Of a stretch of DNA of 32,018 nt, positions 3,512 to 32,018 are shown piece after piece. Positions within the stretch are counted from its first letter, which is position 1. Each line of letters starts with the position of its first letter. This DNA comes from Defluviitaleaceae bacterium (GTDB taxonomy: Bacteria > Bacillota > Clostridia > Lachnospirales > WQUN01), in assembly GCA_009785615.1 (NCBI GenBank), contig WQVX01000019.1:1-32018 (forward strand), written 5' to 3'. The notes beneath the pieces were generated by a model, which searched no databases, was not told the origin of the DNA, and saw only the letters and a list, made by a program, of their open reading frames with translations. The translations under genes were made by a program, and so were the position numbers.

Positions 3512-5080
3512 TTACTTACTAAAATTATCCACAGCCGTACGCTCTACAGCTAAACAAGCTTTGTACCGCTTCATAAATGCAGCAAATCCCTTCACATCTT
3601 CCGAACGTGGTTTTATGCCGGTGCTGGGAAAGTTAGCAAATACTTGGTCATTTAAAAAGGCATCAAGTGTAACTTTATTATTATCCAAATAAGAAGCCAG
3701 CAAAGCTATACCCCAAGCACCACCTTCTCCTGCATTGTCCATTACAGCAACGGGAACATTAAGTGCGCCTGCCATAAGCCTTTGCCCCACACCTTCAGTT
3801 TTAAAGAATCCACCATGCCCCATTAATTGTGTGAGTGTTACTCCTTCTTTTGCTAAAATATCCATGCCTAATTTAAGGGTTGCCATTACAGACATCAGCA
3901 TGGTTCTCATAAAGTTAGCCATTGTAAAGGAGCTGTTTGGTAGTCTCATAAATAGTGGGCGGCCTTCATCAAATCCTGTATTGTGCTCTCCCGAAAGATA
4001 GTTGCAGGCCATAAGTCCACCACCATCAGGGGAACCTTCTAAAGCGGCTTTGTACAATGTTTCATATAAATTGCCCGGCTCTATTTTTTGACCGGTATGT
4101 GCTGACAAAATTTCACTAAACATTTGAACCCAGCCATCCAAATCTGATGTACCATTGTTGCAATGAACCATCGCTACCGGCTTGCCATCAGGGGTCGTAA
4201 CTATATCAAGCTCAGGATATACTTTTGAGAGTGCTTTTTCCAATACTACCATAGCAAAGATAGATGTTCCCGATGATACATTGCCGGTTCGTGCTGCTAC
4301 GCTGTGAGTGGCCACCATACCTGTCCCGGCATCACCTTCCGGCGGACAAAACGGAATCCCCGGTTTAAGTACACCACTCGGGTCAAGTAACTTTGCCCCT
4401 TCTTCTGTAAGCTGTCCGGCATTTTCTCCGGCTACAAGAACCTTTGGCATAATATCCATGAGTTTCCAGTCAAAAGCTTTTTCAAGGACAAGGGAATCGA
4501 ATATTCCAACCATGCTGGCATTGTAGCTCCCTTTTTCGCTGTCTATGGGGAACATCCCGGAGGCATCACCTATCCCCAAAACTTTTTTGCCGGTAAGTTT
4601 GTAGTGAACATATCCCGACAAAGTAGTTATAAAATCGACATTTTTTGCATGATTTTCTCCATTTAAAATAGCCTGATATAAATGTGCAACACTCCAGCGC
4701 AAAGGAATATTGTGCCCAAAACTCTCTCTTAAAATGGTTGCTGCCTCGCCGGTACTTGTATTGCGCCATGTACGAAACTCTGTAAGCACATTGTCTTTAT
4801 TATCCATAGGGATATAACCATGCATCATAGCTGATAATCCTATGCCTGAAATTGCTGTAAGAGGCTCGCCATATTTTTTTTGGAAAGAAGCTGCCAAATC
4901 TGCATAAGCGGCCTGGAGTCCTGACCATATTTCGGATAAATGGTATGTCCATACTCCATTTTCCAGCCTATTTTCCCAATTGTGATTTCCTACTGCCACC
5001 GGCTTAAAGCTCTCGTCTATTAACACGGATTTTATCCGTGTAGAACCTAATTCGATACCTAAAAAGAGACTTTTCTTCAT
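3512..5080 (-). CDS. FGGY-family carbohydrate kinase
   Basis: 522 aa, a full-length member of the FGGY sugar kinase family (xylulokinase/ribulokinase type), which phosphorylates pentoses or other polyols with ATP in the cytoplasm. The N-terminal phosphate motif reads [15 protein letters not shown], with Glu where many members have Asp. The substrate-side motif is GLSAMMHGY, the second phosphate/catalytic region EGDAGTGM plus GNVSSGTS, and the C-terminal adenosine-binding region GHGGFF...[16 protein letters not shown]. The ATG at 5080 is preceded by GTGAGGG. It is monocistronic; no sugar-isomerase neighbour gives the substrate. The family is sure; calling it xylulokinase would be a guess. Confidence 0.85.
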
Positions 5081-12099: not shown

Positions 12100-13206
12100 T
12101 TACTCTGCCGCTTTGAAATTATATAATGGTTTAATTGTTTTCACAATTTCCACAGTATCCCCAATATTAGCAATAATTGCCTCCATTGGCTGATATGCAA
12201 AAGGTGCTTCGTCAAGTGTGCTTTGATTTATTGTTGAAGAATATATCCCCTTCATAGCTTTTTGATATTGGCTTAATGTGATGCTTGCTTTGGCTTCGGA
12301 GCGGCTCATGATGCGCCCTGCACCGTGGGGGGCAGAATAATTCCAATCTTCGTTACCTTTGCCAATGCAAATTAAACTTCCATCACGCATATTCATGGGA
12401 ATTAACAGGCGTTCGCCTTTCTGTGCTGACACCGCACCTTTGCGTAGAATGTCTGTTTCAAGGTCAATATAATTGTGTATGGTGGCAAATTGCTCTGTTA
12501 TTTTCAATTTGACTCTTTTTTCCAATTCTCTCACGATAGCTTTGCGATTCAAATCAGCATAATCTTGTATAATAGCCATGTCGTGGAGATAATCATCAAG
12601 CATCGTGCCTTCCAAATAAGCCAGTACCCTATCTGCACCTTTGCCCTTTCGACCCAAATTGTCTGCGGCAGCATTCTGATACCAATCGCACACTTGCTTG
12701 CCAAGGTTGCGACTGCCGGAATGTATAATAAGGTAGAGTTGTCCTTCTTCATCACTTCCTAATTCTATGAAGTGATTGCCTCCACCCAATGTACCGATGG
12801 ATAATGCGCCTCGCTTGGCATCAATATGTTTTGCACAGCGTAGAGTAGTCAAGTCTATTTCCTCATTAAAATGGTGCGGCTCTTTTCGTATGGAAAAGCC
12901 GGCAGGGATATATTGGTGAATGGCTTTGTCCAGTTGCCCCAAATCTACACGTTTATTTTTGAGAATAGCGGTTTCCATGCCGCATCCAATATCTACACCA
13001 ACAAGATTTGGTACAACTTTGTCAGTAATCGTCATCGTTGTGCCGATAGTACAACCCATCCCGGCGTGAACGTCCGGCATGATTCGGATTTTACTGCCGG
13101 AAATAAATTCTTGGTTCAGCAGATGTTCAATTTGCTGGATGGCACTTGGTTCAGCATTATCTGTGAACATTTTTGCGGTGTTGTATCTTCCTTGAAGTTC
13201 GACCAT
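12100..13206 (-). CDS. rtcB: RNA-splicing ligase RtcB
   Basis: 368 aa from the ATG at 13206, somewhat shorter than E. coli RtcB (408). RtcB joins RNA 2',3'-cyclic phosphate or 3'-phosphate ends to 5'-OH ends using GTP and Mn2+. The metal and active-site motifs are intact: PDVHAGMGCTIG, VGVDIGCGME (metal Cys), LGGGNHFIEL, HSGSRNLG and SAPHGAGRIMSRSEA, whose His would carry the GMP adduct. The ATG at 13218 abuts AGGAG with no spacer; the ATG at 13206, with AGGAG 12 nt away, fits the usual N-terminus (MVELQGRYNTAKVFTDN-like). It lies 38 bp downstream of pnkp. No archease gene is visible. Confidence 0.95.
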   Translation of the reverse strand: MVELQGRYNTAKMFTDNAEPSAIQQIEHLLNQEFISGSKIRIMPDVHAGMGCTIGTTMTITDKVVPNLVGVDIGCGMETAILKNKRVDLGQLDKAIHQYIPAGFSIRKEPHHFNEEIDLTTLRCAKHIDAKRGALSIGTLGGGNHFIELGSDEEGQLYLIIHSGSRNLGKQVCDWYQNAAADNLGRKGKGADRVLAYLEGTMLDDYLHDMAIIQDYADLNRKAIVRELEKRVKLKITEQFATIHNYIDLETDILRKGAVSAQKGERLLIPMNMRDGSLICIGKGNEDWNYSAPHGAGRIMSRSEAKASITLSQYQKAMKGIYSSTINQSTLDEAPFAYQPMEAIIANIGDTVEIVKTIKPLYNFKAAE

Positions 13207-13244
13207 AGTTTTTATCATCTCCTGTTGGATATTTACAAATAATA

Positions 13245-15749
13245 TTATAATCTTGGGTCAACGGGTTCGCTTTCCATTGCAAGTACTCCAAACACACATT
13301 CGTGAACACGATAAAGTGGCTCGTTACGCACAAATCGTTCCAGTGATTCTACCCCAAGAGCAAATTCACTTAAAGCCATGCTTCGTTTCTTTGTCAAAGA
13401 GCGTTTTTTTAATCGCTCCAAATTTTCACCATAGGCATATTCTGCACCATAAATAATACGCAAATATTCTTTGCCTCGGCATTTCATAGCGGGCTGAAGC
13501 AACTCCATGCCCTTCTTGGCAATAAAATCATAAGGCTTCACCACCATGCCTTCACTTCCGAAAGTGGTCAATTCTTCCCACCATTTAATTCCGGTGGTGA
13601 TGCTATTTGCATCATGTAAATCCACAATCAAATTGGATGTAGCTATAAAAATGGAATCTGTCATGTACTTTGCTATGGTTTCCATGTGCCACGCATGGCT
13701 TTCTCCAAACCATGTATTGCCTTCTGTTGCCATAATGTGGAACGGAGCAATTTTATAATCGTCTAAATGCTTAACATCCCAACAATAGCCACGATATGCA
13801 GTAGTATAGCGGCTTATGGCATCTGCCCTACCTTGGTATCGTTCTTGCAATTCAGACAGCAGGGCATTTTCACCCAATTGTTCCATTGACTTGCTAATGG
13901 CATCTATCGCCGCAGAAATACCATGTTTTCCGGCACATCCAACAGGGGCATATTGTTCTTCCAATAACTTCTGTGCCTTGGCAGACCATGGCATGATTTC
14001 GCAGTCAAGGCACAGCCAATCCGTGCTAAATGCATCCCAAAATCCTGATGCATACAGCAAGTTTTGTAAGTGAACCAAGAGTGCAGTTTCTTTTTTAGCA
14101 TCATCAAAAAATTGTCTGCCTGTTCGTGTGTAAATAATGCCAAAGCTACCATCATTTATTTTGAATCGCTTTTCCGCAGTTTCTCTATCTTTGCACAGCA
14201 CAATTACGCCACGCGAACCCATGTGCTTCTGCTGGCATATAACTTTGGCGATGCCTTTGTTTTTGTAATAATCGAAAGCCTCGCTCGGATATTCCAAATA
14301 ATGTGCTAATTTGCCGGTTTCACATGGTGACATGGTTGGTGGCAAATAAATCAACCAATGGGGGTCTGCGGCAAAGCGGCTCATAATTTCTAAAGCGGCG
14401 GCAGAATTTTCTGAGTTAATTTTTATGCTTTTACGCAAAGCAGTGTTCAGATATTTCTGCCCAAGCACATCGTCAATATTTAGCATATCATCATTTATTG
14501 ACAGTGCGATGGGTTTTGCCGGAACGCAATATTGTGCGAGGGCATCTACTTGCATAATGTTTTTTTCGGGATAGCGTAAGGCGGTCAGTTTGCCACCAAA
14601 CACGCATCCGGTATCTATGCAAAATGTGTTGTTCACAATCTGCACATCAGGGCATGGTGTATGCCCATAAACAACCGTTGCCCTGCCTCTATAATCATTC
14701 GCCCACGGTAAGCGTACAGGCAGACCATATTCGTCTGTTTCACCTGTGGTATCGCCATATAAACAAAAATCACGCACACGACCGCTTGCGCGTCCTTGGT
14801 ATTTTTCAATAATCCCTGCGTGAGAAACCACAAGTTTACCACTATCAAACACATAATGGCTGACTAAACCATCCAAGAATTTTTTTGTTTCGTTTATAAA
14901 CTCCTCGCTTTGGTTATAAACTTGTTCCACAGTAATATCCAGCCCATGCGTTAATGTAACATTTGAGCCTTTTAATTTCTTAAACAATTTGGCATCATGG
15001 TTTCCGGCAACACAATATGCATTTCCGGCTTGCACCATATCCATAACAAGGCGAAGCACCTCAACATTTTTTGTGCCGCGGTCACATAAATCGCCAAGAA
15101 AAACAACCCTGCGCCCATCAGGATGGACGCCGTTTACATAGCCGAGTTTTTCCAATAAGGCGCAAAGTTCATCATAGCAACCGTGAATGTCGCCGATTAT
15201 ATCAAACGCGCCTGTAACGTCTTTTTTGTTGTTCCACAAGGGCTTGCGGATTATTTCCACGTTTGCGATGTCATCTTCACTTTTAAGAACATACACATAA
15301 CGGAAGCCTTCTTTTTGCAAACGCTTAATAGAGCGGCGGAGTTGTTCACCCTGCCTATAGATTACCTTGCCGCTAAAATTGCGGTCGGTACGTGCTTCAT
15401 TACGCTCTTTGCATATGTTTTCCGGGACATTTAGCACAATGGCTACAGCATGACAGTCCTGTTGCTTGGCTAATTTTAATAGATTGGCGCGTGCTTCTTT
15501 TTGGACATTGGTCGCATCAATAACTGCCAAATTCCCAAGTTCGAGGCGTTTTTGTGCAATATAATAAAGCGCATCAAAAGCCTGTGCTGTTACAAGCTGA
15601 TTATTTTCGTCATCAGACACAAGTGCGCGAAAATAATCTGACGAAAGCACTTCTGTGGGCTTGAAGTATTTGTTTGCAAATGTGGATTTCCCGCTCCCGG
15701 AAACGCCTACAAGTGCCACGACAGCCAGTTCGGGGATTTCTATACGCAT
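13245..15749 (-). CDS. pnkp: polynucleotide kinase-phosphatase-ligase Pnkp
   Basis: 834 aa, the normal size of bacterial Pnkp (about 850). Three modules appear in order. A 5'-OH kinase comes first, with P-loop GVSGSGKST at 15-23. Next is a calcineurin-like phosphatase that removes 2',3'-cyclic and 3' phosphates, with GDIHG at 186-190, GDLCDRG at 239-245, GNHD at 249-252 and YGHTP at 361-365. Last is an ATP-dependent ligase-like adenylyltransferase with KHMGSRG, whose nucleophile Lys is about residue 508. In known systems Pnkp heals both ends of a broken RNA, and its ligase needs Hen1 to seal. Its start overlaps the end of hen1 by 10 bp, with GGGAGTG upstream, so translation is coupled. All catalytic motifs look intact. 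Confidence 0.96.
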   Translation of the reverse strand: MRIEIPELAVVALVGVSGSGKSTFANKYFKPTEVLSSDYFRALVSDDENNQLVTAQAFDALYYIAQKRLELGNLAVIDATNVQKEARANLLKLAKQQDCHAVAIVLNVPENICKERNEARTDRNFSGKVIYRQGEQLRRSIKRLQKEGFRYVYVLKSEDDIANVEIIRKPLWNNKKDVTGAFDIIGDIHGCYDELCALLEKLGYVNGVHPDGRRVVFLGDLCDRGTKNVEVLRLVMDMVQAGNAYCVAGNHDAKLFKKLKGSNVTLTHGLDITVEQVYNQSEEFINETKKFLDGLVSHYVFDSGKLVVSHAGIIEKYQGRASGRVRDFCLYGDTTGETDEYGLPVRLPWANDYRGRATVVYGHTPCPDVQIVNNTFCIDTGCVFGGKLTALRYPEKNIMQVDALAQYCVPAKPIALSINDDMLNIDDVLGQKYLNTALRKSIKINSENSAAALEIMSRFAADPHWLIYLPPTMSPCETGKLAHYLEYPSEAFDYYKNKGIAKVICQQKHMGSRGVIVLCKDRETAEKRFKINDGSFGIIYTRTGRQFFDDAKKETALLVHLQNLLYASGFWDAFSTDWLCLDCEIMPWSAKAQKLLEEQYAPVGCAGKHGISAAIDAISKSMEQLGENALLSELQERYQGRADAISRYTTAYRGYCWDVKHLDDYKIAPFHIMATEGNTWFGESHAWHMETIAKYMTDSIFIATSNLIVDLHDANSITTGIKWWEELTTFGSEGMVVKPYDFIAKKGMELLQPAMKCRGKEYLRIIYGAEYAYGENLERLKKRSLTKKRSMALSEFALGVESLERFVRNEPLYRVHECVFGVLAMESEPVDPRL

Positions 15750-17125
15750 AATGTAAACACTCCCATCTGTGTTGGCGCACCATGTATTTCAGATGCCTCG
15801 CCTATGTCAGAAAATTTTACTTTATAGCCAAATTTGTCTGCTGTTTTATTCGCCCAATTTTGAAATTCAGCACGAGTCCATTCAAAACGATGGTCGCTAT
15901 GACGCACATCATCTTCATGCAAATTTGCATAGTTGGTGTTATATTCGCGGTTGGGAGTCGTTAGCACAACCACAGGCGGTTTTGCGAATTCAAAAAGCAT
16001 TCTCTCAAAAGCAACAAGGCGCGGAATATCCAAATGTTCTATTACCTCAATCACACAGGCGGCATCAAACCCATTAAATCTGGCATCTTTATAGGTAAGC
16101 GAACCTTGAAAAAGATTTACACGTTCCAACATGGATTCACTTGCCCGTTCCAATTTTAACCGCTCGTTAGCACGTTTAAGGGCAACATGAGAAACATCTA
16201 CTCCTGTAATTTGCGTAAATTGCCTATCTTTTACAAGTTGTTTAATTAATCGTCCTTCGCCGCAACCCAAGTCAATTATTTTTTTCGCACCACAATTTTT
16301 CAGCGTAGCAATAACACTGTTGAGGCGTTGTGTATTAAGATTTTTAACTGCTTCTTTTTCTTCCGTTTCGGAAAGTATATCCGAGGAAGTCGTATCAGTT
16401 TCTGTTAGTCGTTCAAATGCAATGCTTACAAGTGATTTTCTGCGATTAAGATATCTTCCGGTGATGTATGTTCTTTCCGGATGGTTGGGAAGCCAATCTT
16501 CGCCTATTCGCAGTAGTTTATCCACTTCGTCCGCACCAACCCAATAATGTTTGTGTCTATCAAATACAGGAATCAGCACATAGATGTGCTTCAGCAAATC
16601 TCGTAAGCGAACCTTGCCGCTGATAGTTAAGTTCACATATTTGCTTTCGCCCCATTGCGGGAAATTTTCATCAGATACAAAGGTTTCATATTTTACATCG
16701 TACCCAAGCGGCTCGAAAACACTGTTTAATTTGCCTTGCTCGCCACGGCATGGCATCATGGTTATTGTGGCAGATAACTCTAATGGTGAATCGGAAAGGG
16801 CTTGGTGTGCATCTGCCCTCCCTGTCATGGCTGTGCCATATACCCTTGAAATGGCTGTACTCATGAAAGAGGATGAAACATACGGACGGTCATTGACATA
16901 CTCAAATAAACCTCCGCTTGTTGCACCTTCTTTGCCACGGGCAAGGTCTATGGGGTTAATATCCAACAGCAATGCCGCTGTGGTGCGCTCGGCTGAAATT
17001 TCCGGGTAAAACACATATGCTTTGCCATGGTTTAGTTCAAAAGTCTGTGGACGATTTGGATTTTTGAACAAAAGATACCCCAAGTCCGATGCGTTTTCCC
17101 CTGTGTACGTTATGGTTAAGAGCAT
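15740..17125 (-). CDS. hen1: 3'-terminal RNA ribose 2'-O-methyltransferase Hen1
   Basis: 461 aa. The N-terminal half (1-240) matches the bacterial Hen1 domain that binds Pnkp and activates its ligase. The C-terminal half is a SAM-dependent methyltransferase with DLGCGEG at 285-291 and the Hen1 metal-binding signature E360-x2-E363-H364 (EVIEHLD), with a further His in DHRFEWTR (about 412). Bacterial Hen1 methylates the 2'-OH of the 3' end at a broken RNA before sealing, which makes the repaired bond resistant to the same ribotoxin. The ATG at 17125 follows AGGAGG with good spacing. It lies 31 bp after the WG-repeat gene and overlaps pnkp. Confidence 0.95.
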   Translation of the reverse strand: MLLTITYTGENASDLGYLLFKNPNRPQTFELNHGKAYVFYPEISAERTTAALLLDINPIDLARGKEGATSGGLFEYVNDRPYVSSSFMSTAISRVYGTAMTGRADAHQALSDSPLELSATITMMPCRGEQGKLNSVFEPLGYDVKYETFVSDENFPQWGESKYVNLTISGKVRLRDLLKHIYVLIPVFDRHKHYWVGADEVDKLLRIGEDWLPNHPERTYITGRYLNRRKSLVSIAFERLTETDTTSSDILSETEEKEAVKNLNTQRLNSVIATLKNCGAKKIIDLGCGEGRLIKQLVKDRQFTQITGVDVSHVALKRANERLKLERASESMLERVNLFQGSLTYKDARFNGFDAACVIEVIEHLDIPRLVAFERMLFEFAKPPVVVLTTPNREYNTNYANLHEDDVRHSDHRFEWTRAEFQNWANKTADKFGYKVKFSDIGEASEIHGAPTQMGVFTLCV

Positions 17126-20086: not shown

Positions 20087-20207
20087 GCATATTTAGTAAA
20101 TCTGTTACCGGTAAACTAAAATCCCCCACTTACGGCAAACAAAATTCCCCATAGTAGAAGGCACTTGTGTAGAATAATGGAAAAAACACAGGAGGCCAAA
20201 AAAAGAA

Positions 20208-20887
20208 ATGGTGGGAATAGAAATGTATGCAGAAATAAAAAACGTAAATTAATGGGATATTCAAAAAGAGTATGTGCGAGAGAATTAAATGTGGATAGGA
20301 AAACAATCCGGAAATATTGGGACATGGAGGAAGGAGAGTACGCAGGAGTAGTAATAGAGTCGAAAAGGCGAACAAGAGGGCTAGATGAATATAGAAACTT
20401 CATAGTGGGGCGTTTAAATGAATATCCGGAGATAACAAGTGCCATTACAGAAGATCATCTGAGAAAAGACGTACTTAAAGCATTTGAAACTCTTGATGGT
20501 GCAAAAGAATATATTGACCGAATCATAGTAAAGTACCCAAGATATGTGAGAGATCAGCTAATCATCATACGAAACACCCAAAAAAGTTATGAGATGGCTG
20601 AATTGCAAAAAGCAATAGACTATTGCTTAGAGAGAGAACTCATAAGTGCAAATGATTTTCGCGATACATTAGCATATTTCAGAGCAGCGGAAGCACCGAT
20701 AGAACCACGGAAGGTAAGTCTGCCTACGAAATATTCATTAATCGTGGCGCAGGCACGTCCGGTCAATGCCTATATTCAAGCATTTGATGGCAACAAAAGG
20801 GGGGGAATATATCATGAATCACGAAATTATTTCCCTTGCAAAGCAATTCCGTCTAAGTTCCCTATACGATGGTATTATCTCAGTTAA
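20208..20887 (+). pseudogene. istA transposase remnant
   Basis: The natural start appears to be ATG 20208 (MVGIEMYAEIKN), preceded by a GGAGG-type site. It shifts frame near 20240-20255 into the frame reading LMGYSKRVCARELN, the IstA N-terminal helix-turn-helix (VDRKTIRKYW). After NEYPEITSAI the sequence jumps to a C-terminal part (PRYVRDQLIIIRNTQ). The central DDE catalytic domain is missing: about 230 residues remain of about 400-500. The protein could bind the ends but not catalyse transposition. Confidence 0.75.
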
Positions 20888-21151
20888 TGAAGATGCAAGC
20901 CATGAGGATTTTATTCTTGATGTCCTTAGGAAAGAGGCTGCCCTCCGTGATGAACGCACAACAAAGGAGCACCTCAAACATGCCTGCTTTCCTTCTTTTA
21001 AGAGTTTTGATGACTTTGACTGTTCTTTTCAAAAGGGGGGGTTAATCTCAAGCAGATAAAAACCTTGGCTAAGCCGGAATGGCCGGATTCTTTATTCAAT
21101 CTTATTCTTATCGGTTCGCCCGGTACAGGTAAAACTCATATAGCCCTTGCT
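20814..21151 (+). pseudogene. istB N-terminal fragment (frameshifted)
   Basis: It starts at ATG 20814 (MNHEIISLAKQFRLSSLYDG) after a G-rich ribosome-binding site. A run of seven G (21035-21041) breaks the frame after SFQKG. Homology continues in another frame with AKPEWPDSLFNLILIG and the Walker A motif GSPGTGKTHIALA, then stops abruptly near 21151. IstB is the AAA+ helper ATPase of IS21; this copy lacks Walker B and everything after it. Confidence 0.8.
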
Positions 21152-21191
21152 GAGCCTTCACTTTTCGCTTGCTCTCGTGTAGTGGAAGCGG

Positions 21192-21403
21192 TGGCGGGTG
21201 GTATACTGCGTTTAAAGACGGGGGTTGATATGGTGAATTCTGCCCATCATCTCATCCCCCGTCGCCTACTTGCGAGCCACCACCCGCCAAAAATTTTGTC
21301 AAGGCATTTTCACCGCCTTGACAAAATTTTAGCCGCAACGGAGCCTTTTTCGTTGAAGGCTTTTACAAATATATACATTTTGGTTTTGCGGCTTTATTTT
21401 TTT
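21192..21403 (+). ncRNA. three directly abutting hairpins ending in a T-run
   Basis: Helix 1 (21192-21289): TGGCGGGTGGT / ACCACCCGCCA, then GACGGGGG / CCCCCGTC, then GATATGG / CCATCATC (one bulge). Helix 2 (21290-21330): AAAATTTTGTCAAGGC / GCCTTGACAAAATTTT, 16 bp. Helix 3 (21331-21393): AGCCGCAA / TTGCGGCT enclosing AGCCTT / AAGGCT, followed by TTATTTTTTT. The helices join with no spacer nucleotides. The block sits between the truncated istB and the right IS end. It may be a structured RNA, a non-autonomous insertion or a multi-part terminator; no known family was recognised, and the strand is inferred from the terminal T-run. Confidence 0.45.
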
Positions 21404-21510
21404 GGTTTTAATTTACTTTATTGTTATGTTTTTTGGGGGATTTTTATTTGCCTAAACCGGGGGATTTCTGCTTGACAGTGACAGTTTTAGGTTATTGGCA
21501 CATCTATTAT

Positions 21511-21680
21511 ATGGCTGCATTTGGCATTTTTCAAGATATTAAACAGGCTCTCATGAGTTGAAACATAATGCTTGGGTTACTCCATATAATCTCAATGGAA
21601 AGTACTATATATCATTTATGGATAGTAAAAAAGCGGCTACGCCGCTTTTTTACTATCCTGATATTTCCTTTCTTCATTAG
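21511..21680 (+). pseudogene. possible frameshifted small-protein remnant
   Basis: ATG 21511 opens MAAFGIFQDIKQALMS, then TGA. A +1 shift leads into LKHNAWVTPYNLNGKYYISF and on to TAG at 21680. The second part looks protein-like, but the frame runs through a perfect terminator hairpin (21621-21657), no ribosome-binding site is clear, and no family is recognised. It could be chance. Confidence 0.2.
21621..21657. terminator. perfect 17-bp bidirectional terminator
   Basis: GATAGTAAAAAAGCGGC (21621-21637), loop TAC, GCCGCTTTTTTACTATC (21641-21657). The T6 lies in the stem on both strands, so it can terminate both ways. It lies between the IS21 remnant and the minus-strand 24-aa gene. Confidence 0.8.
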
Positions 21681-21722
21681 CGATAGCCTACTGCAAAATT
21701 TTAAGGTGATAAACTATTTACA

Positions 21723-21797
21723 TTAAGAACTTACATTTGGTGTGTTGTCGTTAGTAGTTTGCTTTTTTTGTTTTTTATTATCCTTATTTTTAGCCAT
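21723..21797 (-). CDS. 24-aa Lys/Asn-rich peptide
   Basis: ATG at 21797 with an ideal GGAGGTGAT ribosome-binding site 7 nt upstream. The product begins MAKNKDNKKQKKQTTNDNTP and ends NVSS. It is very hydrophilic and basic. I recall similar very small Lys/Asn-rich proteins in spore-forming clostridia but cannot assign a family. The near-consensus ribosome-binding site is the main evidence; the terminator at 21621-21657 lies downstream on the same strand. Confidence 0.55.
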   Translation of the reverse strand: MAKNKDNKKQKKQTTNDNTPNVSS

Positions 21798-22104
21798 GTG
21801 GAATCACCTCCATTTCTACTTGTAATTATTATTCCACGCTTAATCAAAAATATAAGTCATTTCACTAACTAGGATTATTATCCAGCAAATTAAAATTTGC
21901 AAACAAAAAGGGGCAATGATACCAATGTCCACAGGTTAAGAAAATTTTGAAAATATAGCAGAAAAACAGCTAAAACACTTGACAAAGGAGAGACGCCCCA
22001 AAAATCGTGAGAACACATTGTAATCAATGGTGTACCTCAAGAATATTGGAAGTGACTGTGGTGAAATTAATACAAGACCAAATTTTGGCGGAACACCCAT
22101 GCCG
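21798..22104. other. short gene-free region before the istB fragment
   Basis: About 300 bp, AT-rich. It must hold the promoter of the 24-aa gene on the minus strand, though no clear -35/-10 pair was seen. The plus-strand frame from ATG 22027 merely reads into the istB fragment and shows no IstB homology before about 22105. Confidence 0.4.
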
Positions 22105-22446
22105 GTAAATGCCCTAACAGAAGCGAAAAATCAAGGTATTCTCTCTCGTTTCATGAAGCAGTTCGAGAAGTTAGACCTGCTTATATGTGACGAATGGGGT
22201 TACGTCCCCATCGACTCTGACGGGTCGAAACTGCTCTTTCAAGTTGTTTCGGAGTGCTACGAAAGGAAGTCTGTAATAATCACTACAAACCTTGAGTTTG
22301 CTCGCCGGAACGACATTTTCACCGATACCAAGATTACCGCCGCTCTGCTTGATAGGATAATCCACCATTCTCACCTGTTGGATTATACAGAGCGAGAATC
22401 CAGACGGTTGCATGATGCCCTCTTGAACATCAAGGCCACGGGATAG
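22105..22446 (+). pseudogene. istB C-terminal fragment (second IS21 remnant)
   Basis: The reading starts abruptly at VNALTEAKNQGILSRFMKQF and carries the IstB Walker B region LDLLICDEWGYVPID, SVIITTN and the C-terminal TAALLDRIIHHSHLLD, ending at TAG 22446. The Walker A half is missing. It begins roughly 25 residues after the point where the first istB fragment stops, but the right IS end at 21483 and about 620 bp lie between them. It is therefore either a second IS21 copy or a rearranged part of the same one. No IS21 inverted repeat follows it. Confidence 0.8.
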
Positions 22447-22549
22447 CATTGTGGAAACCATGGAAAATCTAATTCGTTAAGTGGCTGTTTCCGGTTTCCC
22501 ACAGTTACCACAACGCCTGCTACCACTAAAGACCAATATGATGATTGAT

Positions 22550-22572
22550 AAAAAAAGAACGGCTTGCGCCGT
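22550..22572 (-). terminator. intrinsic terminator facing minus strand
   Basis: On the minus strand ACGGC, loop GCAA, GCCGT, then TCTTTTTTT. The stem is only 5 bp but the T-run is strong. It lies left of the candidate ncRNA and could end a minus-strand transcript crossing it. Confidence 0.5.
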
Positions 22573-22639
22573 ATTATCCAATCACCATTGTTTACATTTA
22601 TTGGCAATCACTGCTGCACTTTTATATTGACAAACACAG

Positions 22640-22994
22640 TATGGGCGATAAACACAAGACCGTAAAGGAGATTGGCAATCCTTCGGGCCAGGAAGCATGG
22701 GTACGAGCATAATGATACTCCTGTCCAGCCACAACCTTAGCGGCGAGTACGCAGACGTAATGGGGGCAGCAGCACGAGAACCGTGCCGGGGTGAGATTCC
22801 CGTGGGGCTGTTGCTAAAAAGCCCTCCGTAATTGTAACAACGCCTAACACCGAAGGCGTAAAAGGTGGTGCGTTTCTAAATAAATTGGCTAGGCTGACTT
22901 TTTGAGCCTGTTGTTTAGGTTTTTGAAAATTAAGCGTCTAGTCATTGTTTATGTTGAAATTGCACAAGGGCGAGATATATCCTTGTGCAATTTT
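22640..22994. ncRNA. GC-rich structured tract, candidate non-coding RNA
   Basis: No credible ORF. Between 22680 and 22860 the sequence is visibly GC-richer than its surroundings. Stems found by eye: TACG/CGTA with a CAGA loop (22748-22759); an 8-bp outer stem GCAGCAGC/GCTGTTGC (22766-22773 with 22807-22814) enclosing CACG/CGTG (22773-22785) and CGGG/CCCG (22787-22802), a three-way junction; ACGCCT/AGGCGT (22840-22859); AGGCT/AGCCT (22891-22909); and a terminator-like hairpin at 22957-22994. A TTGACA lies at 22627. The strand is uncertain because a minus-strand terminator sits at 22550-22572. It matches no RNA family I can recall, and shows no group I/II intron core. Confidence 0.5.
22957..22994 (+). 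terminator. 13-bp hairpin, likely terminator of the candidate ncRNA
   Basis: AAATTGCACAAGG (22957-22969) pairs with CCTTGTGCAATTT (22981-22993), with an 11-nt loop, ending in TTTT on the plus strand. It would terminate plus-strand transcription of the structured tract. Confidence 0.6.
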
Positions 22995-23076: not shown

Positions 23077-23298
23077 ATGAATGATGCGGTTGAAATAGGT
23101 GGTATAAAGTATAAGATGAAACAAACGGCAGATAACATTACCCTTCAAAGGTACAATGAAAAACATAAGATGTGGGTAAATCTTCACTTCCCAAAGGGCA
23201 ACCATGATGAGGGTAAAAGAATTGAAGATGAAATTATACAAATCCTCTCGAACCAGTATATAGAGCGGAACGCCCAAGCGGTTATTACCCCTTCTTAA
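23077..23298 (+). CDS. 73-aa protein upstream of the serine recombinases
   Basis: Starts at ATG 23077 after GGAGGGGGCGCAC. The product contains YNEKHKMWVNLHFP and an amphipathic C-terminal helix (EDEIIQILSNQYIERN). No family is recognised with confidence. Small proteins of this size are often found next to large serine recombinases, where they may act as directionality factors or regulators. That is context inference only. It is cytoplasmic, with no membrane segment. Confidence 0.65.
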   Translation: MNDAVEIGGIKYKMKQTADNITLQRYNEKHKMWVNLHFPKGNHDEGKRIEDEIIQILSNQYIERNAQAVITPS

Positions 23299-23366: not shown

Positions 23367-23409
23367 TATTAAGGTAGTATAATTGTAGTGTGAATGGAGG
23401 TGATTGTAC

Positions 23410-25023
23410 GTGACGAAAACAACGAGGGTTGGTTGCCTATACCGTGTTTCCACTAAGAAGCAAGTAGAGGAAAATGACATACCCATGCAAAAAAACGCCT
23501 GTACTGCGTTTATTGAATCTATGCCAAGCTGGGTTTTGGCAAAGGAATATTACGAAAAAGGCGTTTCAGGGTATCATGTATCGGCAGAGCAAAGGTATGT
23601 TTTGCAGCAGGCTCGTTCTGATGCTGAAAATGGGCTGTTTGATGTTCTACTGGTTTTCATGTTTGACCGTTTAGGACGGCGCGAAGATGAAACCCCTTTT
23701 ATTGTTGAATGGTTTGTTGGACAAGGTATAGAAGTATGGAGTGTCAAGGAGGGACAGCAACGCTTCGATAACAGGGCTGATAAGCTGATAAACTACATTC
23801 GTTTCTGGCAATCAGGCGGCGAGAGTGAAAAAACCTCCATACGTGTTAAGGAAAAGCACAAGCAAATGGTTGAAGATGGGGTTTTTCGTGGCGGTACACC
23901 ACCATATGGTTATAAGTTAGTAGAATCCGAAAACAAGAACCAAAAGGGCTATAAGCTAAAAGAACTCGCTATTGATGAAAAAGAAAGCGAGGTTGTTAAA
24001 ACTATATTCAAACTTGTATGTGAAAATGGGTATGGAGGGCATAGAGTAGCCAAATACCTAAACGAAAGGGAAATCAAAACAAAAAGAGGTAACTACTGGA
24101 CAACTGATACCATTATGTCCTTGCTTAAAAACCCCATTTATAAAGGTTATTATGTGTCGGGCAAAAGACCGTCCACACGTGGAGAAAGTAAAAGAGTATC
24201 TTCTGATAATTGGGTTTACTCTAATGAACGACTTCCACACCTAATAATTGTTGATGAACAGATATGGAATAACGCAGAAGAAATTAGGGAATCAAGAAAA
24301 GTAAAAACCGGCAAATATCCAAGACAGACAAAAGGTCCATTACTCTTTGTTGGGTTGGCGAAATGTTCTGTATGCGGTGCAAATTTAGGTTCGAGATATG
24401 CGGTTAAAAAATGGACGAGAAAAAAAGACAACCAAGAAATTAAATTTTTGCAACCAAAATATATATGCTTTGGGCGTAGAGCAACCACTCCATGCACAGG
24501 ACAACGGACTTTTAGCCAAAAGAAAATTGACCCTGTTGTTATGGAGGAAGTGTATGCTTATCTGAATACCTTGCAAACGCTGGATTTATCGTCAAAAATA
24601 GATGCTATGCAAGGTAAGATTAAGCAGAATACAGAAAGCGACTTGCAAGATATAAGGAAACAAATCACCAAATCCGAAAAGGAACTGGAACTGCTTAACA
24701 ATGAAATCATCAAAACGCTAACGAATGAGAGCAGTTTCACAGCCGAGCAACTCTCCAAAATAATTAGCAAAAAAGAGGACGAGTTGGAACAGCTACAACA
24801 AGGCGAGGTAAAGCTATCCGAAGAACTCTCTATTAGCCTAAAGGAAGTAAACGCTTTTGTTGAACTACAGACGATGATACCAAACTGGCGGCAAGAGTTT
24901 GAAGCATCAGAAGTAGATGTACAAAAAATGTTGGTAGCAAAACTTATAGATTCTGTGGTTATTTCAAGCGACAGCATAGATGTTCATTTCAAATTTAATC
25001 TGTTTGACTTGGACCCGGCATAG
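23410..25023 (+). CDS. large serine recombinase 1
   Basis: 537 aa from the GTG at 23410 (GGAGG 9 nt upstream); the TTG at 23404 lies within the site and is less likely. The N-terminal catalytic domain has YRVSTKKQ with the nucleophilic Ser at about residue 14, VSGYHVSAEQR and FMFDRLGRREDE. Next is the recombinase domain (FRGGTPPYGYKL, TTDTIMSLLKNPIYKGYYVSG). Then come a zinc ribbon (CSVCGANLGSRY ... YICFG) and a long coiled coil (about 415-500). Such enzymes integrate or excise mobile elements by double-strand cleavage through a phosphoserine link. It forms a tandem pair with the next gene, 15 bp apart. Confidence 0.93.
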   Translation: MTKTTRVGCLYRVSTKKQVEENDIPMQKNACTAFIESMPSWVLAKEYYEKGVSGYHVSAEQRYVLQQARSDAENGLFDVLLVFMFDRLGRREDETPFIVEWFVGQGIEVWSVKEGQQRFDNRADKLINYIRFWQSGGESEKTSIRVKEKHKQMVEDGVFRGGTPPYGYKLVESENKNQKGYKLKELAIDEKESEVVKTIFKLVCENGYGGHRVAKYLNEREIKTKRGNYWTTDTIMSLLKNPIYKGYYVSGKRPSTRGESKRVSSDNWVYSNERLPHLIIVDEQIWNNAEEIRESRKVKTGKYPRQTKGPLLFVGLAKCSVCGANLGSRYAVKKWTRKKDNQEIKFLQPKYICFGRRATTPCTGQRTFSQKKIDPVVMEEVYAYLNTLQTLDLSSKIDAMQGKIKQNTESDLQDIRKQITKSEKELELLNNEIIKTLTNESSFTAEQLSKIISKKEDELEQLQQGEVKLSEELSISLKEVNAFVELQTMIPNWRQEFEASEVDVQKMLVAKLIDSVVISSDSIDVHFKFNLFDLDPA

Positions 25024-25038
25024 AATGGGGTGCATCAT

Positions 25039-26943
25039 GTGAAAACTAAGAGAGTTGTTTGTCTATATCGTGTAAGCACGAAAACACAGCTAACCAATGA
25101 TGATATTCCCATGCAGATAAAAGCCTGTGCCGACTTTATAAAAAAACAACGGACTTGGAAACTGGAAAAGGAGTACACAGAAAAAGGCGTGTCGGGCTAT
25201 CATAAATCAGCTAAAGAGCGTGATGTATTAGTACAGCTTCAAAAAGATGCCGTTGCCGGGTTGTTTGATGTTCTTCTTGTTTTCATGTTTGACCGTTTGG
25301 GTAGGCGTGAGGACGAAACCCCATTTGTGGTTGAGTGGCTCGTAAGTCAAGGCATTGAAGTATGGAGCGTTAGCGAAGGACAGCAAACCTTTGATGACCA
25401 TACCGACAAGCTAATAAACTATATACACTACTGGCAATCAAGTGGTGAAAGTGAACACACCTCTATACGTGTTGCCGAAAAACATAATCAATTAGTCGTG
25501 GACGGCAAATTTCGTGGAGGATGTGCGCCATATGGCTATAGGTTAGAATATTCGGGCGAGTACAACCGAAAAGGCTATGAGCGTAAGAAACTCGTTATAC
25601 ATGAGCTGGAAGCAACGGTTGTTAGAAGAGTTTTTGAATTATCCTCCGACATAAACATGGGCAGTTATCGAGTGGCGCAAATTCTAAATGACGAAGGATT
25701 GACTACCCAACGAGGTAAAAAATGGACTGTACAAACAATCTTACGAATGTTAAGGAATCCTGTATACAAGGGTGACTATGTTGCAGGAAAGGTAAGAAGA
25801 AAACGTGGCAAGCCCGTTACATCCAAAAAAGAAACTTGGGTACATTCAAGAGAGCTTGTAAAGGAATTGACGGTCGTAGACGTTGCCTTGTGGGAACAAG
25901 TAAATGCGAATATAAGCCAACGTGACACAAGAGCGGGCGCAACCCCACATGATAAAAGCGGATTCTTATTGACCAACGTTGCGTATTGCAGTTATTGCAA
26001 AGCAAAAATGCACCCAAGAATCAGCCGCTCGAAGCGACAACTTAAAGGAACAGGCGAAATAGCCGTTTACAGTTCAAAATACTATTTTTGCCCCAAGAAA
26101 GCACGGCAAGGTGACTGCGATGGTTATGTACAGCACGGCATCAAGAGAATTGAAGCCGCCTTGTTGGATGAAATATATGCATACTTGGATAGTATCAAGG
26201 CTATGGATATATCACGCACGATTATGAACCGCAAGGCTAAACTTCTAAAAGGGCAATCCGAAACAATAAAGCCTATGCTACAAAAAATAGCCACTCTAAA
26301 AAAAGAAGTAGCTAGACTCGAAGAAGAAATTTTGAAATGCCTAGCTGGTGAATCGGCATTTACGCAAAAACAACTATCAGAAGCCATGAGCGATAAAGTA
26401 AGCGAGTTGTCTGCAATGGAGCATGAGGTCAAAACCGAAAAAGAAAAGACAGCAGTAGCTATCAATCGCTTAGACGAATTAACTGTTTTCAGAAAGTTGG
26501 TTGTATCGTGGAAAAAGGAATTTTCACGAGCCAATACCGAAACGCAAAGTGCTTTAATCAGTATGGTCATAGACCATGTACATATCGCCCGTGATTCGGT
26601 CGATATTAAATTCAAATACAACCACCATGATATAGAAGATATTTATGGTGGCAAAATTATAAGGCAAGGGGGTGCACCACCCGCTTGTCCAATCGGAAGT
26701 TCTTGCGATGGATGCTGGGGCGATCGTTGTGAAAGAGGTATTGGCAGTCCTCCGCTTGGTGGTAATAGAGGCGGGGATTGCTGTGGACGCCGTGGCTGGG
26801 GATGGAACCCTGCTTGGCGTGGAAGCAGTTGTGGTTGCGGCTGGGGATCAAATCGTTGGGGTTGGGGCGGTTATAACTGGCTTGGCTCTGTAGCGGAAAT
26901 ACCGGTTAGCAAAATTGTTAACTTTACCCATAATACAATCTAA
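25039..26943 (+). CDS. large serine recombinase 2 with Gly/Trp/Cys-rich tail
   Basis: 634 aa from the GTG at 25039 (GGGG 8 nt upstream); this start mirrors the first recombinase, and GTG 25030 is the alternative. It is a paralogue of recombinase 1 along its catalytic domain (YRVSTKTQ, VSGYHKSAKER, FMFDRLGRREDE), recombinase domain (FRGGCAPYGYRL, TVQTILRMLRNPVYKGDYVAG), zinc ribbon (CSYCKAKM ... YFCPKKARQGDCDG) and coiled coil. The usual end is near IKFKYNHHDIEDI. After it comes a unique tail of about 90 residues rich in Gly, Trp and Cys (RGWGWNPAWRGSSCGCGWG). The tail looks like a fusion with an unrelated reading frame. It probably works with recombinase 1, perhaps as a heteromer. Confidence 0.92.
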   Translation: MKTKRVVCLYRVSTKTQLTNDDIPMQIKACADFIKKQRTWKLEKEYTEKGVSGYHKSAKERDVLVQLQKDAVAGLFDVLLVFMFDRLGRREDETPFVVEWLVSQGIEVWSVSEGQQTFDDHTDKLINYIHYWQSSGESEHTSIRVAEKHNQLVVDGKFRGGCAPYGYRLEYSGEYNRKGYERKKLVIHELEATVVRRVFELSSDINMGSYRVAQILNDEGLTTQRGKKWTVQTILRMLRNPVYKGDYVAGKVRRKRGKPVTSKKETWVHSRELVKELTVVDVALWEQVNANISQRDTRAGATPHDKSGFLLTNVAYCSYCKAKMHPRISRSKRQLKGTGEIAVYSSKYYFCPKKARQGDCDGYVQHGIKRIEAALLDEIYAYLDSIKAMDISRTIMNRKAKLLKGQSETIKPMLQKIATLKKEVARLEEEILKCLAGESAFTQKQLSEAMSDKVSELSAMEHEVKTEKEKTAVAINRLDELTVFRKLVVSWKKEFSRANTETQSALISMVIDHVHIARDSVDIKFKYNHHDIEDIYGGKIIRQGGAPPACPIGSSCDGCWGDRCERGIGSPPLGGNRGGDCCGRRGWGWNPAWRGSSCGCGWGSNRWGWGGYNWLGSVAEIPVSKIVNFTHNTI

Positions 26944-29247: not shown

Positions 29248-29483
29248 GCGTTTGAGCAGTAACCATGCGGGTTTGCGGGAAACGGCGATTTAGCAAAAAT
29301 TTTTGCACGTTGGGCAAACATCAGACAAACATTGTCCACTCAATCAAACACATTTATTGTGCGGCACAACGGCATTTGGATTTTCGGCTTCTCGGAAATC
29401 GGGCAAACATTTTTATAGTTTTCAAATTCGTACAGATTAGCGTCTACCTACTATTGACAAATATTCCAAACATGGAGGACGCT

Positions 29484-29774
29484 ATGAATCAAGTAAAGCA
29501 AGGAAAGTATGAATCGTTACGAGAACAGTACCCGCCGCACATCAGCCTTGACCAGCTACACAGAATATGCGGGATAGCAAAACGGAGTGCGAAATATCTC
29601 GTTGAACATGGAATTATTCCCGCCCAAGACACGGGCAGGCAGACATGGCGGTATAAAATCGCCCTTGATGATGTCATTATTTATCTTCGCCGCCGTGAAC
29701 AAGTTGGCAGTATGATACCCTCGCGGGGTAGTATCTTCCCGCAAGAATCCTACTCGCAAAATGAGTACCCGTAA
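29484..29774 (+). CDS. HTH-type DNA-binding protein 1
   Basis: 96 aa from ATG 29484, chosen for the GGAGG 5 nt upstream (29474-29478). The core YPPHISLDQLHRICGIAKRS followed by AKYLVEHGIIP and WRYKIALDDVIIYLRRRE looks like an excisionase/MerR-like winged HTH with a recognition helix and a C-terminal site for a hairpin-type wing. It is the first gene of a tight plus-strand cluster (overlapping the next by 14 bp) leading into parA. It is probably a regulator or excisionase-type accessory of the element; the family is inferred from pattern only. Confidence 0.65.
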   Translation: MNQVKQGKYESLREQYPPHISLDQLHRICGIAKRSAKYLVEHGIIPAQDTGRQTWRYKIALDDVIIYLRRREQVGSMIPSRGSIFPQESYSQNEYP

Positions 29775-30090
29775 ATGCTTCGCACAAATGGTACTACCAG
29801 GGCATGAATCGGATATTGCTGAGTATTTTAACTTCATTTATGCGGAGTATGATGATTTGCTGACTACCGTTGATGTCGTTGAAATGACAGGGCTTGAAAA
29901 AAGCACGGTATTGAAATTGCTGAAAGCCGGGGCTATCAAGTCAATAACGACCAACCCGAAGTATCTCATACCCAAACCATACCTATTAGAATTTGTCATA
30001 ACGCCACGGTTTATCAATTATCGGACAAACTCAGAGCAATTCAAAAAAATATTAGGGGGTTTTGAGATATGGACAAATGCAAAATCATAA
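29761..30090 (+). CDS. HTH-type DNA-binding protein 2
   Basis: 109 aa from ATG 29761; ATG 29788 is an alternative. The central part LLTTVDVVEMTGLEKSTVLK / LLKAGAIKSITTNPKYLIPK is a clear excisionase-like helix-turn-helix followed by a short beta-wing, the pattern that binds DNA next to attachment or partition sites. It overlaps gene 1 by 14 bp and parA by 22 bp, so the three are translationally coupled. Its likely role is control of the element or excision; not proven. Confidence 0.68.
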   Translation: MSTRKCFAQMVLPGHESDIAEYFNFIYAEYDDLLTTVDVVEMTGLEKSTVLKLLKAGAIKSITTNPKYLIPKPYLLEFVITPRFINYRTNSEQFKKILGGFEIWTNAKS

Positions 30091-30860
30091 CCGTTGCCAA
30101 TCAAAAAGGCGGCACAGGTAAGACAACCACCGCCTGTAACCTGGGCTATGCCTTGGCAGAACAAGGCTACAAGGTGCTTCTTGTGGATTTTGACCCACAA
30201 TCTAACTTGTCTATGAGCTTTGGGATTGAACGTCCCAACGAATTAACGCTATCCATGCACAATCTACTGGCGATGGTAATGGACGGTGAAACTCTACCAG
30301 AGAAGGCTTACTATATCATGCACGGCTCAAAGGTGGATATTATCCCCTGCAACATAAACCTTTCCGTCACGGAAATAAATTTACGTGACGAATTAGGCGG
30401 GGAGCATACGCTATCAGAACTACTTGAACCATTGCGGAGTGACTACCATTTTATAATCGTAGACACCAATCCATACCTTGGGTTACTCACTATCAATGCT
30501 TTGGCTGCTTGTGATGAAGTCATTATACCTGTAAGCCCACAATTATGGTCAGCTACGGGCTTAACGGATTTGCTACAAACTATTTTCAAGGTTAAACGCA
30601 AAATTAATTCACGGATAACGATTGCGGGGATTGTGCTAACCATATGTGACGAGCGTACAAGGTTGTTCCGTGAAGCAAAGAAACTTCTGGATGATTTTTG
30701 TGGTGATAGAATCAAGATGTTCAAAGCTCGCATCCCCAATACGGTAAAAGTCGGGGAAGCAAACTACGCAAGCCGTAGCATTTTGGAATATTCGGCAGAC
30801 AGTAAGGCGGCACTTGCCTACAAAAACTTTGCACTGGAGGTAAGCAGTCATGCCAAATAA
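30069..30860 (+). CDS. parA: ParA/Soj-family partition ATPase
   Basis: 263 aa, typical for plasmid/ICE ParA. The deviant Walker A KGGTGKTT is at residues 13-20. The second motif VDFDPQSNLS follows, then the Walker B-like FIIVDTNPYLG, where most homologues have DxPPxLG, and PVSPQLWSATGL. ParA binds DNA non-specifically in its ATP form and, together with ParB on parS, segregates low-copy replicons or ICEs. The start has a GGGGG site, and it overlaps both neighbours (HTH 2 by 22 bp, parB by 11 bp). The unit marks the right-hand element as plasmid/ICE-derived. Confidence 0.93.
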   Translation: MDKCKIITVANQKGGTGKTTTACNLGYALAEQGYKVLLVDFDPQSNLSMSFGIERPNELTLSMHNLLAMVMDGETLPEKAYYIMHGSKVDIIPCNINLSVTEINLRDELGGEHTLSELLEPLRSDYHFIIVDTNPYLGLLTINALAACDEVIIPVSPQLWSATGLTDLLQTIFKVKRKINSRITIAGIVLTICDERTRLFREAKKLLDDFCGDRIKMFKARIPNTVKVGEANYASRSILEYSADSKAALAYKNFALEVSSHAK

Positions 30861-31371
30861 CAAGAACATAGCCAAACCACGGCTACAAAATCTTGACGAT
30901 TTATTTCAGCTTAATGATGGCGTAAACCCATTGGAACAGACTATGCCGATAATGCAGACCCAGCCCGCAAATAAACGTGCCGTAACTTCTGTTGCTGTTG
31001 AACAGCTAACCCCGTTCAAAGACCATCCATTCCACTTATACGCTGGAGAACGCTTAGATGATATGGTTGCAAGCATTAAGGCAAATGGCGTACTTGTGCC
31101 GATTATCGTTCGCAAGGTGGGTAGCATTTTAGAAATATTGTCCGGGCATAACCGAGTAGAAGCCGCCAAACTGACAGAACTCACGGAAGTACCTGCTTTA
31201 GTGTTTGAGGATATTTCTGATGAGGACGCAATGGTATATGTGGTTGAAACTAACCTTATACAGCGTTCATTTAAAACCAAGATTAAACAGCTTTTGGTTA
31301 TGACAAAGGGCGTAGCGTTTGATTATAAAATCAGACACTACGCCCTTTGCAATATCCAAAAACAATATTGA
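30850..31371 (+). pseudogene. parB: ParB N-terminal part, truncated
   Basis: 173 aa instead of about 280-300. The N-terminal ParB/CTP-binding domain is intact: GERLDDMVASIKANGVLVPI, LSGHNRVEAAKLTELTEVPA, then VVETNLIQRSF. Directly after RSF the sequence diverges (KTKIKQLLVMTKG) through a hairpin and stops at 31371. The central HTH and C-terminal dimerisation domains are missing. An Rpn-family gene on the opposite strand starts at once, so an insertion or rearrangement near 31275 probably cut parB. The rest may lie beyond the window. It overlaps parA by 11 bp. Confidence 0.8.
31305..31348. terminator. hairpin at the parB/Rpn junction
   Basis: AAAGGGCGTAG (31305-31315) pairs with CTACGCCCTTT (31338-31348), extended by GT/AC past one mismatch. 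A second small stem CAATAT/ATATTG follows at 31350-31370. The pair lies exactly where ParB homology stops and the Rpn gene ends, so it may be the Rpn terminator (weak T-tail) or the end of an inserted unit. Confidence 0.5.
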
Positions 31372-31376
31372 TAAGT

Positions 31377-32018
31377 TTAGATAGCTTTACAGAGGGCTTC
31401 TACTTCGTCATGGGGCAAGCCAGTAGCAGTGGAAACATCAGCAACAGACATCTTCATGCTTAGAAGGTTTTTGGCTATATCCGATTGCATTTGAGTAACT
31501 GCCCCGTGTTCTCTCGTAGCATTATCCCGTTGTTCCTTTAGTCGCGCTTCATAAAGCTGTCTAGCCTTTTCATCGGCAGATAGTTCCAATAAACGCAAAG
31601 TTGCTTTTTTCATAACAGGGCTTTTTTTGGCTAACACACTTAATTCCTCCTCCGTCTTGACATCAAGAAACTTCATCCAGTCAAGTAGTTGTGGGTTTGG
31701 TGTTTCGGTATCATTAAACAGCTTACGGGCTTTTGGAATTTCCAGAGTATGAATTTCCAAAATGTCTGTTAGCAAAACTTTATTTTCAATATCGTACAGC
31801 CCGAATTTATGATGAAATTTATCGCTTTGCTTAATAAGTGTATGGTCTGTAATGACAATACTGATTACACGCTTGATTTTGCCATACTTGTCACTTTCGC
31901 CAATTTGCTCCGTTATTAGCTTTGAAACATAAAATACAATTCTGGATTCCATAAAAGGCATAGGGTCTACTTGAATTTCCACATTCAAAATTTTGCCCGA
32001 TTTTAGCTTTATCTTTAC
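31377..32018 (-). CDS. Rpn-family PD-(D/E)XK nuclease (5' truncated by window)
   Basis: The frame stays open to the window edge, so the gene starts outside; 213 residues are visible. The visible N-terminal part VKIKLKSGKILNVEIQ carries the end of the PD-(D/E)XK active site (E-x-Q). It is followed by MPFMESRIVFYVSKLI and a C-terminal helical region ending in a putative HTH (MSVADVSTATGLPHDEVEAL). This matches Rpn recombination-promoting nucleases (PD-(D/E)XK family 'transposases'), found in many copies in clostridia. It sits convergent to, and immediately downstream of, the broken parB. Confidence 0.82.
   Translation of the reverse strand, partial: VKIKLKSGKILNVEIQVDPMPFMESRIVFYVSKLITEQIGESDKYGKIKRVISIVITDHTLIKQSDKFHHKFGLYDIENKVLLTDILEIHTLEIPKARKLFNDTETPNPQLLDWMKFLDVKTEEELSVLAKKSPVMKKATLRLLELSADEKARQLYEARLKEQRDNATREHGAVTQMQSDIAKNLLSMKMSVADVSTATGLPHDEVEALCKAI

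What the first reader, a model, noticed from the sequence alone, without database searches (positions are those of the whole stretch)
22640..22994. Unassigned structured RNA next to the serine recombinases
A 350-nt ORF-free tract is GC-rich within AT-rich DNA. It shows a three-way junction (8-bp stem enclosing two 4-bp hairpins), at least three further stems, a possible alternative pairing AACGC/GCGTT (22839-22843 with 22870-22874) that competes with the ACGCCT stem, and flanking terminators on both sides. It lies just upstream of a recombinase operon, so it could be an element-encoded ncRNA. No known family was recognised.
Basis: partly seen in the sequence, partly recalled or inferred. Interest (0 to 1): 0.65.

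Follow-up and report, generated by a model that had tools for sequence, protein, structure and literature searches.

The report
Truncated pemK/canT antitermination RNA
The tract is a shortened copy of a known but functionally unassigned RNA family (Rfam "pemK RNA"), and the evidence gathered here indicates that this family is the same thing as canT, an RNA with which the mobile element Tn916 makes RNA polymerase ignore stop signals, so hundreds of mobile elements in Gram-positive bacteria probably use this trick.

Summary
The tract holds a real structured RNA on the + strand, but not an unknown one: 22709-22805 matches Rfam RF02913 (pemK RNA; 62 bits, cut-off 35). Rfam types the family cis-regulatory; no function was found in the papers searched. 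In 116 copies, helices P1-P5 covary, G-U but not A-C exceptions in P2 show that the + strand is the RNA, and two parts outside the Rfam model appear: a boxA-like element 130-270 nt upstream, and a long-range helix (PX).

The copy in a Tn916-like element lies in canT, the experimentally shown cis-acting processive antiterminator RNA (PMC11658703). The inactivating canT mutation (ATA to TGC, nt 283 after orf8) falls on the first three bases of the pemK consensus AUAAUGAUAC, and the inactivating 162-bp deletion removes the core. I therefore assign pemK RNAs as canT-type antiterminators of mobile-element operons. No held paper makes this link.

The window copy lacks boxA, UACGUU and the 5' strand of PX, lies beside a broken IS21 gene, and is probably a relic. 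For the window: new member of a known kind. The family-level link is the interesting part.

The parts
22709..22805 (+). pemK RNA core (RF02913, model 1-61), starting with the conserved AUAAUGAUAC
   Evidence: cmscan 62.4 bits, E 3.9e-9 in the window
22643..22708 (+). 5' part that remains: GGGCGA box (22643-22648), P1 hairpin (22665-22669/22679-22683), PX 3' strand (about 22698-22708) without its partner
   Evidence: alignment with homologues; partner strand and UACGUU absent, best boxA match has 6 mismatches
22721..22769 (+). P2: CUGUCC 22721-22726 with GGGCAG 22764-22769
   Evidence: 100% of cells paired in 37 sequences, 4 of 6 pairs with changes on both sides; 28 G-U and 0 A-C cells
22770..22788 (+). 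P3: hairpin around the loop AGAAC
   Evidence: all 7 pairs with changes on both sides
22789..22801 (+). P4: GGG/CCC hairpin with loop UGAGAUU
   Evidence: pairs verified in the window
22805..22824 (+).
   Evidence: own-versus-permuted pairing z -12.4, 0/3000
22840..22859 (+).
   Evidence: sequence
22957..22993 (+). 13-bp hairpin followed by TTTT, possible weak terminator between the RNA and the downstream genes
   Evidence: not called by the terminator scan
22601..22628 (+). promoter-like site TTGGCA-16-TATATT just upstream of the truncated RNA (chance not excluded)
   Evidence: 3 found, 2.8 expected
23077..23298 (+). 73-aa ORF with a good ribosome-binding site, in the place that small TnpW/Xis-like genes take in homologous loci; no family match
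23404..25023 (+). large serine recombinase 1 (Resolvase, Recombinase, Zn_ribbon_recom)
25030..26943 (+). large serine recombinase 2
20766..22446 (+). broken IS21 istB (fragments 20766-21059, 21065-21475, 22027-22446) directly upstream
   Evidence: Pfam IstB_IS21

Best explanation
The tract is a member of the pemK RNA family (RF02913), which I identify with canT, the cis-acting processive antitermination RNA of Tn916. Full-length members consist of boxA, UACGUU, a long-range helix PX that closes a multi-branched domain (P0, P1), then AUAAUGAUAC and P2-P5. They are transcribed as a leader ahead of the integrase, mobilization or maintenance genes of mobile elements. The nascent RNA folds and modifies the RNA polymerase that made it, so that it reads through terminators downstream, including those met after the element has excised and circularized. 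Shown by others: antitermination, cis action, processivity and orientation dependence of Tn916 canT. Shown here: a pemK RNA lies inside canT, the point mutation and the deletion hit it, the structure covaries, and boxA is enriched. Inferred: that all family members do the same; that boxA recruits NusB/S10 as in rRNA operons; that the window copy, which has lost boxA, UACGUU and the PX 5' strand, is weak or dead.
For: Window hit RF02913, 62.4 bits. A Tn916-like element of pCF10 carries RF02913 at L192:4506-4606, 55 bits, between orf8 and xis. canT(S3), ATA to TGC at nt 283 after orf8, equals L192:4506-4508, the first AUA of the pemK consensus; canT(delta162), nt 229-390, equals 4452-4613. Both mutants lose antitermination, and canT works in cis, processively, on heterologous terminators and in one orientation only. 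A Tn5397-like element has the RNA in the same place, after orf7/orf8 and before tndX. boxA with at most 3 mismatches: 58/110 upstream regions, against 2/110 on the reverse strand, 2/106 downstream and 8/550 shuffles; the same sequence stands in rrn spacers of the same genomes. PX: own pairing -11.7 versus -7.9 (sd 0.24) when permuted, 0/5000. P2-P4 pairs 94.9% versus 45-55% when slid. G-U 28 versus A-C 0 in P2. Downstream genes are mobile-element genes; upstream often Sigma70_r4 and HTH_16 as in Tn916 orf7/orf8.
Against: Function is proved for one member only. In the 400-bp canT fragment the S3 mutation had little or no effect, which the authors could not explain. Fragment boundaries could not be read, so the need for boxA is untested. 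The pCF10 element is Tn916-like, not Tn916 itself. Relatedness of sequences inflates the permutation z-scores. For the window copy there is no expression evidence, and its truncation argues against activity. Terminators between RNA and gene are not a general feature (no control).
Confidence: 0.82

Rival explanations
1. Ligand- or protein-responsive leader (riboswitch or attenuator) that controls only the next gene through a local terminator or the ribosome-binding site, as the Rfam type 'Cis-reg' would suggest.
For: Rfam types the family Cis-reg. The RNA stands in sense orientation upstream of genes. The window shows a competing pair AACGC/GCGUU next to hairpins.
Against: No consistent terminator follows the RNA (no control). 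The switch pairing in the window lies outside the conserved RNA. The family stands before unrelated genes. canT acts on heterologous terminators in series.
Confidence: 0.1
2. boxA and the structured RNA only protect a long untranslated leader from Rho, and the structured part has another, unknown job.
For: boxA is enriched upstream and resembles rrn boxA, where it protects untranslated RNA.
Against: canT suppresses intrinsic terminators T1-T3, rrnB T1/T2 and lambda t0 in a reporter, and mutations in the structured core abolish that.
Confidence: 0.08
3. Guide or target-recognition RNA for the recombinase (like IS110 bridge RNA or omega RNA).
For: It stands next to recombinase genes in many loci.
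Against: It also stands before ParA, MazF and tyrosine integrases. Loop sequences such as AGAAC and GUGAAAUU are conserved instead of varying with the target.
Confidence: 0.01
4. A short conserved ORF (AUG AUA ... GGU GAA AUU CCC) instead of an RNA.
For: In the window the frame from 22712 is open.
Against: Only 8 of 61 distinct copies keep the two ends in one open frame; P2 and P3 change on both sides.
Confidence: 0.01

Closest known systems
Rfam RF02913 pemK RNA
   Same: Core sequence and hairpins, 62.4 bits, above the gathering score
   Different: Rfam models 61 core positions; the RNA also has P5 and, upstream, P1, P0, PX and boxA. The window copy lacks boxA, UACGUU and PX
Tn916 canT (Wirachman & Grossman 2024, PMC11658703)
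   Same: Contains an RF02913 RNA at the mutated positions; same place after orf7/orf8 and before the recombination genes
   Different: The window copy is truncated, has a different recombinase pair downstream, and no conjugation genes were recognised near it in the window
put RNA (HK022), EAR RNA (B. subtilis eps) and lambda nut/rrn boxA antitermination
   Same: Works like them: cis-acting RNA leader, processive read-through; boxA shared with rrn and nut
   Different: Different sequences and structure (from own knowledge); membership not claimed
pLS20 conAn1/conAn2 bipartite system
   Same: Antitermination for conjugation operons of Gram-positive elements
   Different: pLS20 positions 1-45000 hold no RF02913 match; needs a protein, ConAn1

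Membership tests
RF02913 pemK RNA | Covariance model score at or above 34.8 bits | tested here: met
   62.4 bits, full model 1-61
RF02913 pemK RNA | Conserved AUAAUGAUAC and hairpins P2-P4 | tested here: met
canT-type antiterminator (as defined here from homologues) | boxA 130-270 nt upstream of the core | tested here: not met
   window best match has 6 mismatches; only TATTGACAAACA at 22625
canT-type antiterminator (as defined here from homologues) | UACGUU and long-range helix PX | tested here: not met
   no PX partner better than shuffles in 22250-22690
canT-type antiterminator (as defined here from homologues) | Core bases whose mutation inactivates canT (AUA of AUAAUGAUAC) | tested here: met
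   window 22709-22711 AUA; canT(S3) position matched in L192
canT-type antiterminator (as defined here from homologues) | Cis-acting, processive read-through of terminators | not testable with these tools
   shown for Tn916 canT only
IS110 bridge RNA / omega RNA | Fixed partnership with one recombinase or nuclease family | tested here: not met

The most novel reading that the evidence does not exclude
RF02913 is a family of boxA-bearing, about 300-nt processive antitermination RNAs that mobile elements across the phylum use to take over the host's rRNA-type Nus machinery and switch on integration, transfer or maintenance operons, so that an orphan Rfam family and canT are one widespread system with a defined, testable architecture.
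Probability: 0.7. Interest if true: 0.75.

Novelty: new member of a known kind. Interest (0 to 1): 0.62.

Why it matters
It gives a function to an orphan RNA family found in 133 of 392 genomes sampled from this order and 26 of 398 sampled from the phylum. It generalizes canT from Tn916 to elements with serine or tyrosine recombinases, ParA/ParB or MazF, and adds a covarying structure model and a boxA to an RNA whose structure its discoverers called complicated. Read-through of terminators by a cis RNA would be a common control layer of horizontal gene transfer in Gram-positive bacteria.

Tried and rejected
Coding: frame not kept. Riboswitch/attenuator: no general terminator after the RNA by a loose, uncontrolled scan. 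Bridge/guide RNA: gene contexts too diverse. Energy z-scores gave no signal. A pattern scan of viral contigs gave nothing; phages gave two weak hits. No other copy of the DNA around 22100-22720 was found in 41 genomes, so the edge of the IS21 relic could not be fixed. pLS20 holds no family member in the stretch scanned. A calibrated extended covariance model was planned but not built; permutation and pair counts were used instead.

Full report
1. What is in the window. Rfam at gathering threshold gives one match in 32 kb: RF02913, pemK RNA, + strand, 22709-22805, 62.4 bits, full model (alignment). So the tract is a structured RNA of a catalogued family, with no function beyond 'Cis-reg' in Rfam; the original description (Weinberg et al. 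2017, from my own knowledge) is not in the held library. GC content is raised as stated, but folding energy alone would not have shown it.

2. Homologues. RF02913 occurs in 38 of 146 near relatives, 133 of 392 genomes sampled from the order and 26 of 398 sampled from the phylum, often in several copies per genome. I collected 116 copies with flanks and oriented them. Conservation runs beyond the Rfam model on both sides: a P5 hairpin after the core; before it P1 with GCSAUGAC, a P0 hairpin with GAGCGA, and further upstream UACGUU and a boxA-like sequence.

3. Structure. On a 37-sequence alignment, 94.9% of cells in P2, P3 and P4 pair, against 45-55% when partners are slid; 12 of 16 pairs have changes on both sides. 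In P2, exceptions to Watson-Crick pairing are 28 G-U and no A-C, so the + strand RNA is what is selected, not DNA or the other strand. Own-versus-permuted pairing supports P1, P2, P3, P4 and P5 (z -8 to -17) and the long-range helix PX, whose 5' strand follows UACGUU and whose 3' strand directly precedes AUAAUGAUAC (-11.7 against -7.9, sd 0.24, 0 of 5000). In the window the conserved fold is also the more stable of the two.

4. boxA. TGTTCTTTGAAAACT with at most 3 mismatches lies upstream in 58 of 110 copies, mostly 130-270 nt before the core, against 2 of 110 on the opposite strand, 2 of 106 downstream and 8 of 550 dinucleotide shuffles. Spacers of rRNA operons in the same genomes carry the same element, including the variants TGCACCTTGAAAACTGAATA and TGTACATTGAAAACT. 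That boxA binds NusB/S10 is established for rRNA operons; here it is inference.

5. Identity with canT. In elements related to Tn916 the RNA lies after orf7 (sigma-like) and orf8 (HTH) and before tndX. In Tn916, Wirachman and Grossman (PMC11658703) found between orf8 and xis a processive, cis-acting, orientation-dependent antiterminator, canT, needed for transcription past terminator T1 and for conjugation. They report a 162-bp deletion (nt 229-390 after orf8) and an ATA to TGC change at nt 283 that destroy it. In the Tn916-like element of pCF10, orf8 ends at L192:4223, so nt 283 is 4506, where the sequence reads ATA, and RF02913 matches 4506-4606. The mutated bases are the first three of the pemK consensus; the deletion removes P1 through P4. 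boxA stands at 4342-4356, with PX as in the other copies. The paper does not mention Rfam or boxA in its main text, and no held paper links pemK and antitermination. A caveat from the same paper: in a 400-bp fragment the point mutation had little effect.

6. Context. The first large gene downstream was a serine recombinase in 25 of 48 loci, otherwise mostly a tyrosine integrase, PemK/MazF or ParA; the genes upstream are often Sigma70_r4 and HTH_16 proteins. The RNA thus belongs to mobile elements in general, not to serine recombinases, which argues against a guide or bridge RNA.

7. The window copy. It keeps GGGCGA, P1, the core and P5, but has no UACGUU, no PX 5' strand and no boxA (best match 6 mismatches; only TATTGACAAACA at 22625). 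Upstream lies a broken IS21 istB; downstream a 73-aa ORF without family and two large serine recombinases. No conjugation genes were recognised nearby. I read it as the remnant of an element whose antiterminator has been cut at the 5' end. A promoter-like site at 22601-22628 could still drive it, but such sites are expected by chance. The claimed terminators are weak, and P6 with its alternative pairing lies outside the conserved RNA.

8. Verdict. Member of RF02913: certain by Rfam's criterion. Family works as canT: likely (0.82), proved experimentally for one member. Window copy functional: doubtful. Most interesting is the link between an orphan RNA family and a proven antiterminator, with an extended architecture that can be tested in laboratory strains.

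Noticed in passing
window 12100-17125 (- strand): RNA-repair cluster: RtcB ligase, Pnkp (kinase-phosphatase-ligase) and Hen1 (ligase-Pnkp-associating region plus methyltransferase) side by side.
   Followed up: partly
window 20165-22446: Decayed IS21-type element: istB split into at least three fragments.
   Followed up: partly
L084 (G000:C11) 1339-1442: Second, divergent pemK-like RNA in the same genome, just under the gathering score (34.5 bits).
   Followed up: no
window 29265-31988: HTH, ParA, ParB_N genes and, on the other strand, a PDDEXK_2 transposase-type nuclease: signs of another mobile element; no RF02913 match beside them.
   Followed up: no
L192 4449-4700 (- strand): 'Hypothetical protein' WP_001845478.1 (place of orf5) is annotated antisense across the canT/pemK RNA; the canT paper found orf5 not needed, so it is probably a spurious call.
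   Followed up: partly
core of many copies, e.g. L041, L192:4530-4560: The loop of P2 holds a conserved block AGUCACAG-UCCGAGCGU...GCGUCGCAGG-CAAUG, shortened or replaced by a small hairpin in others; it looks like a tertiary-contact module.
   Followed up: no
window 25030-26943: The second serine recombinase ends in a Gly/Trp-rich tail of unusual composition, perhaps a frameshift or fusion.
   Followed up: no
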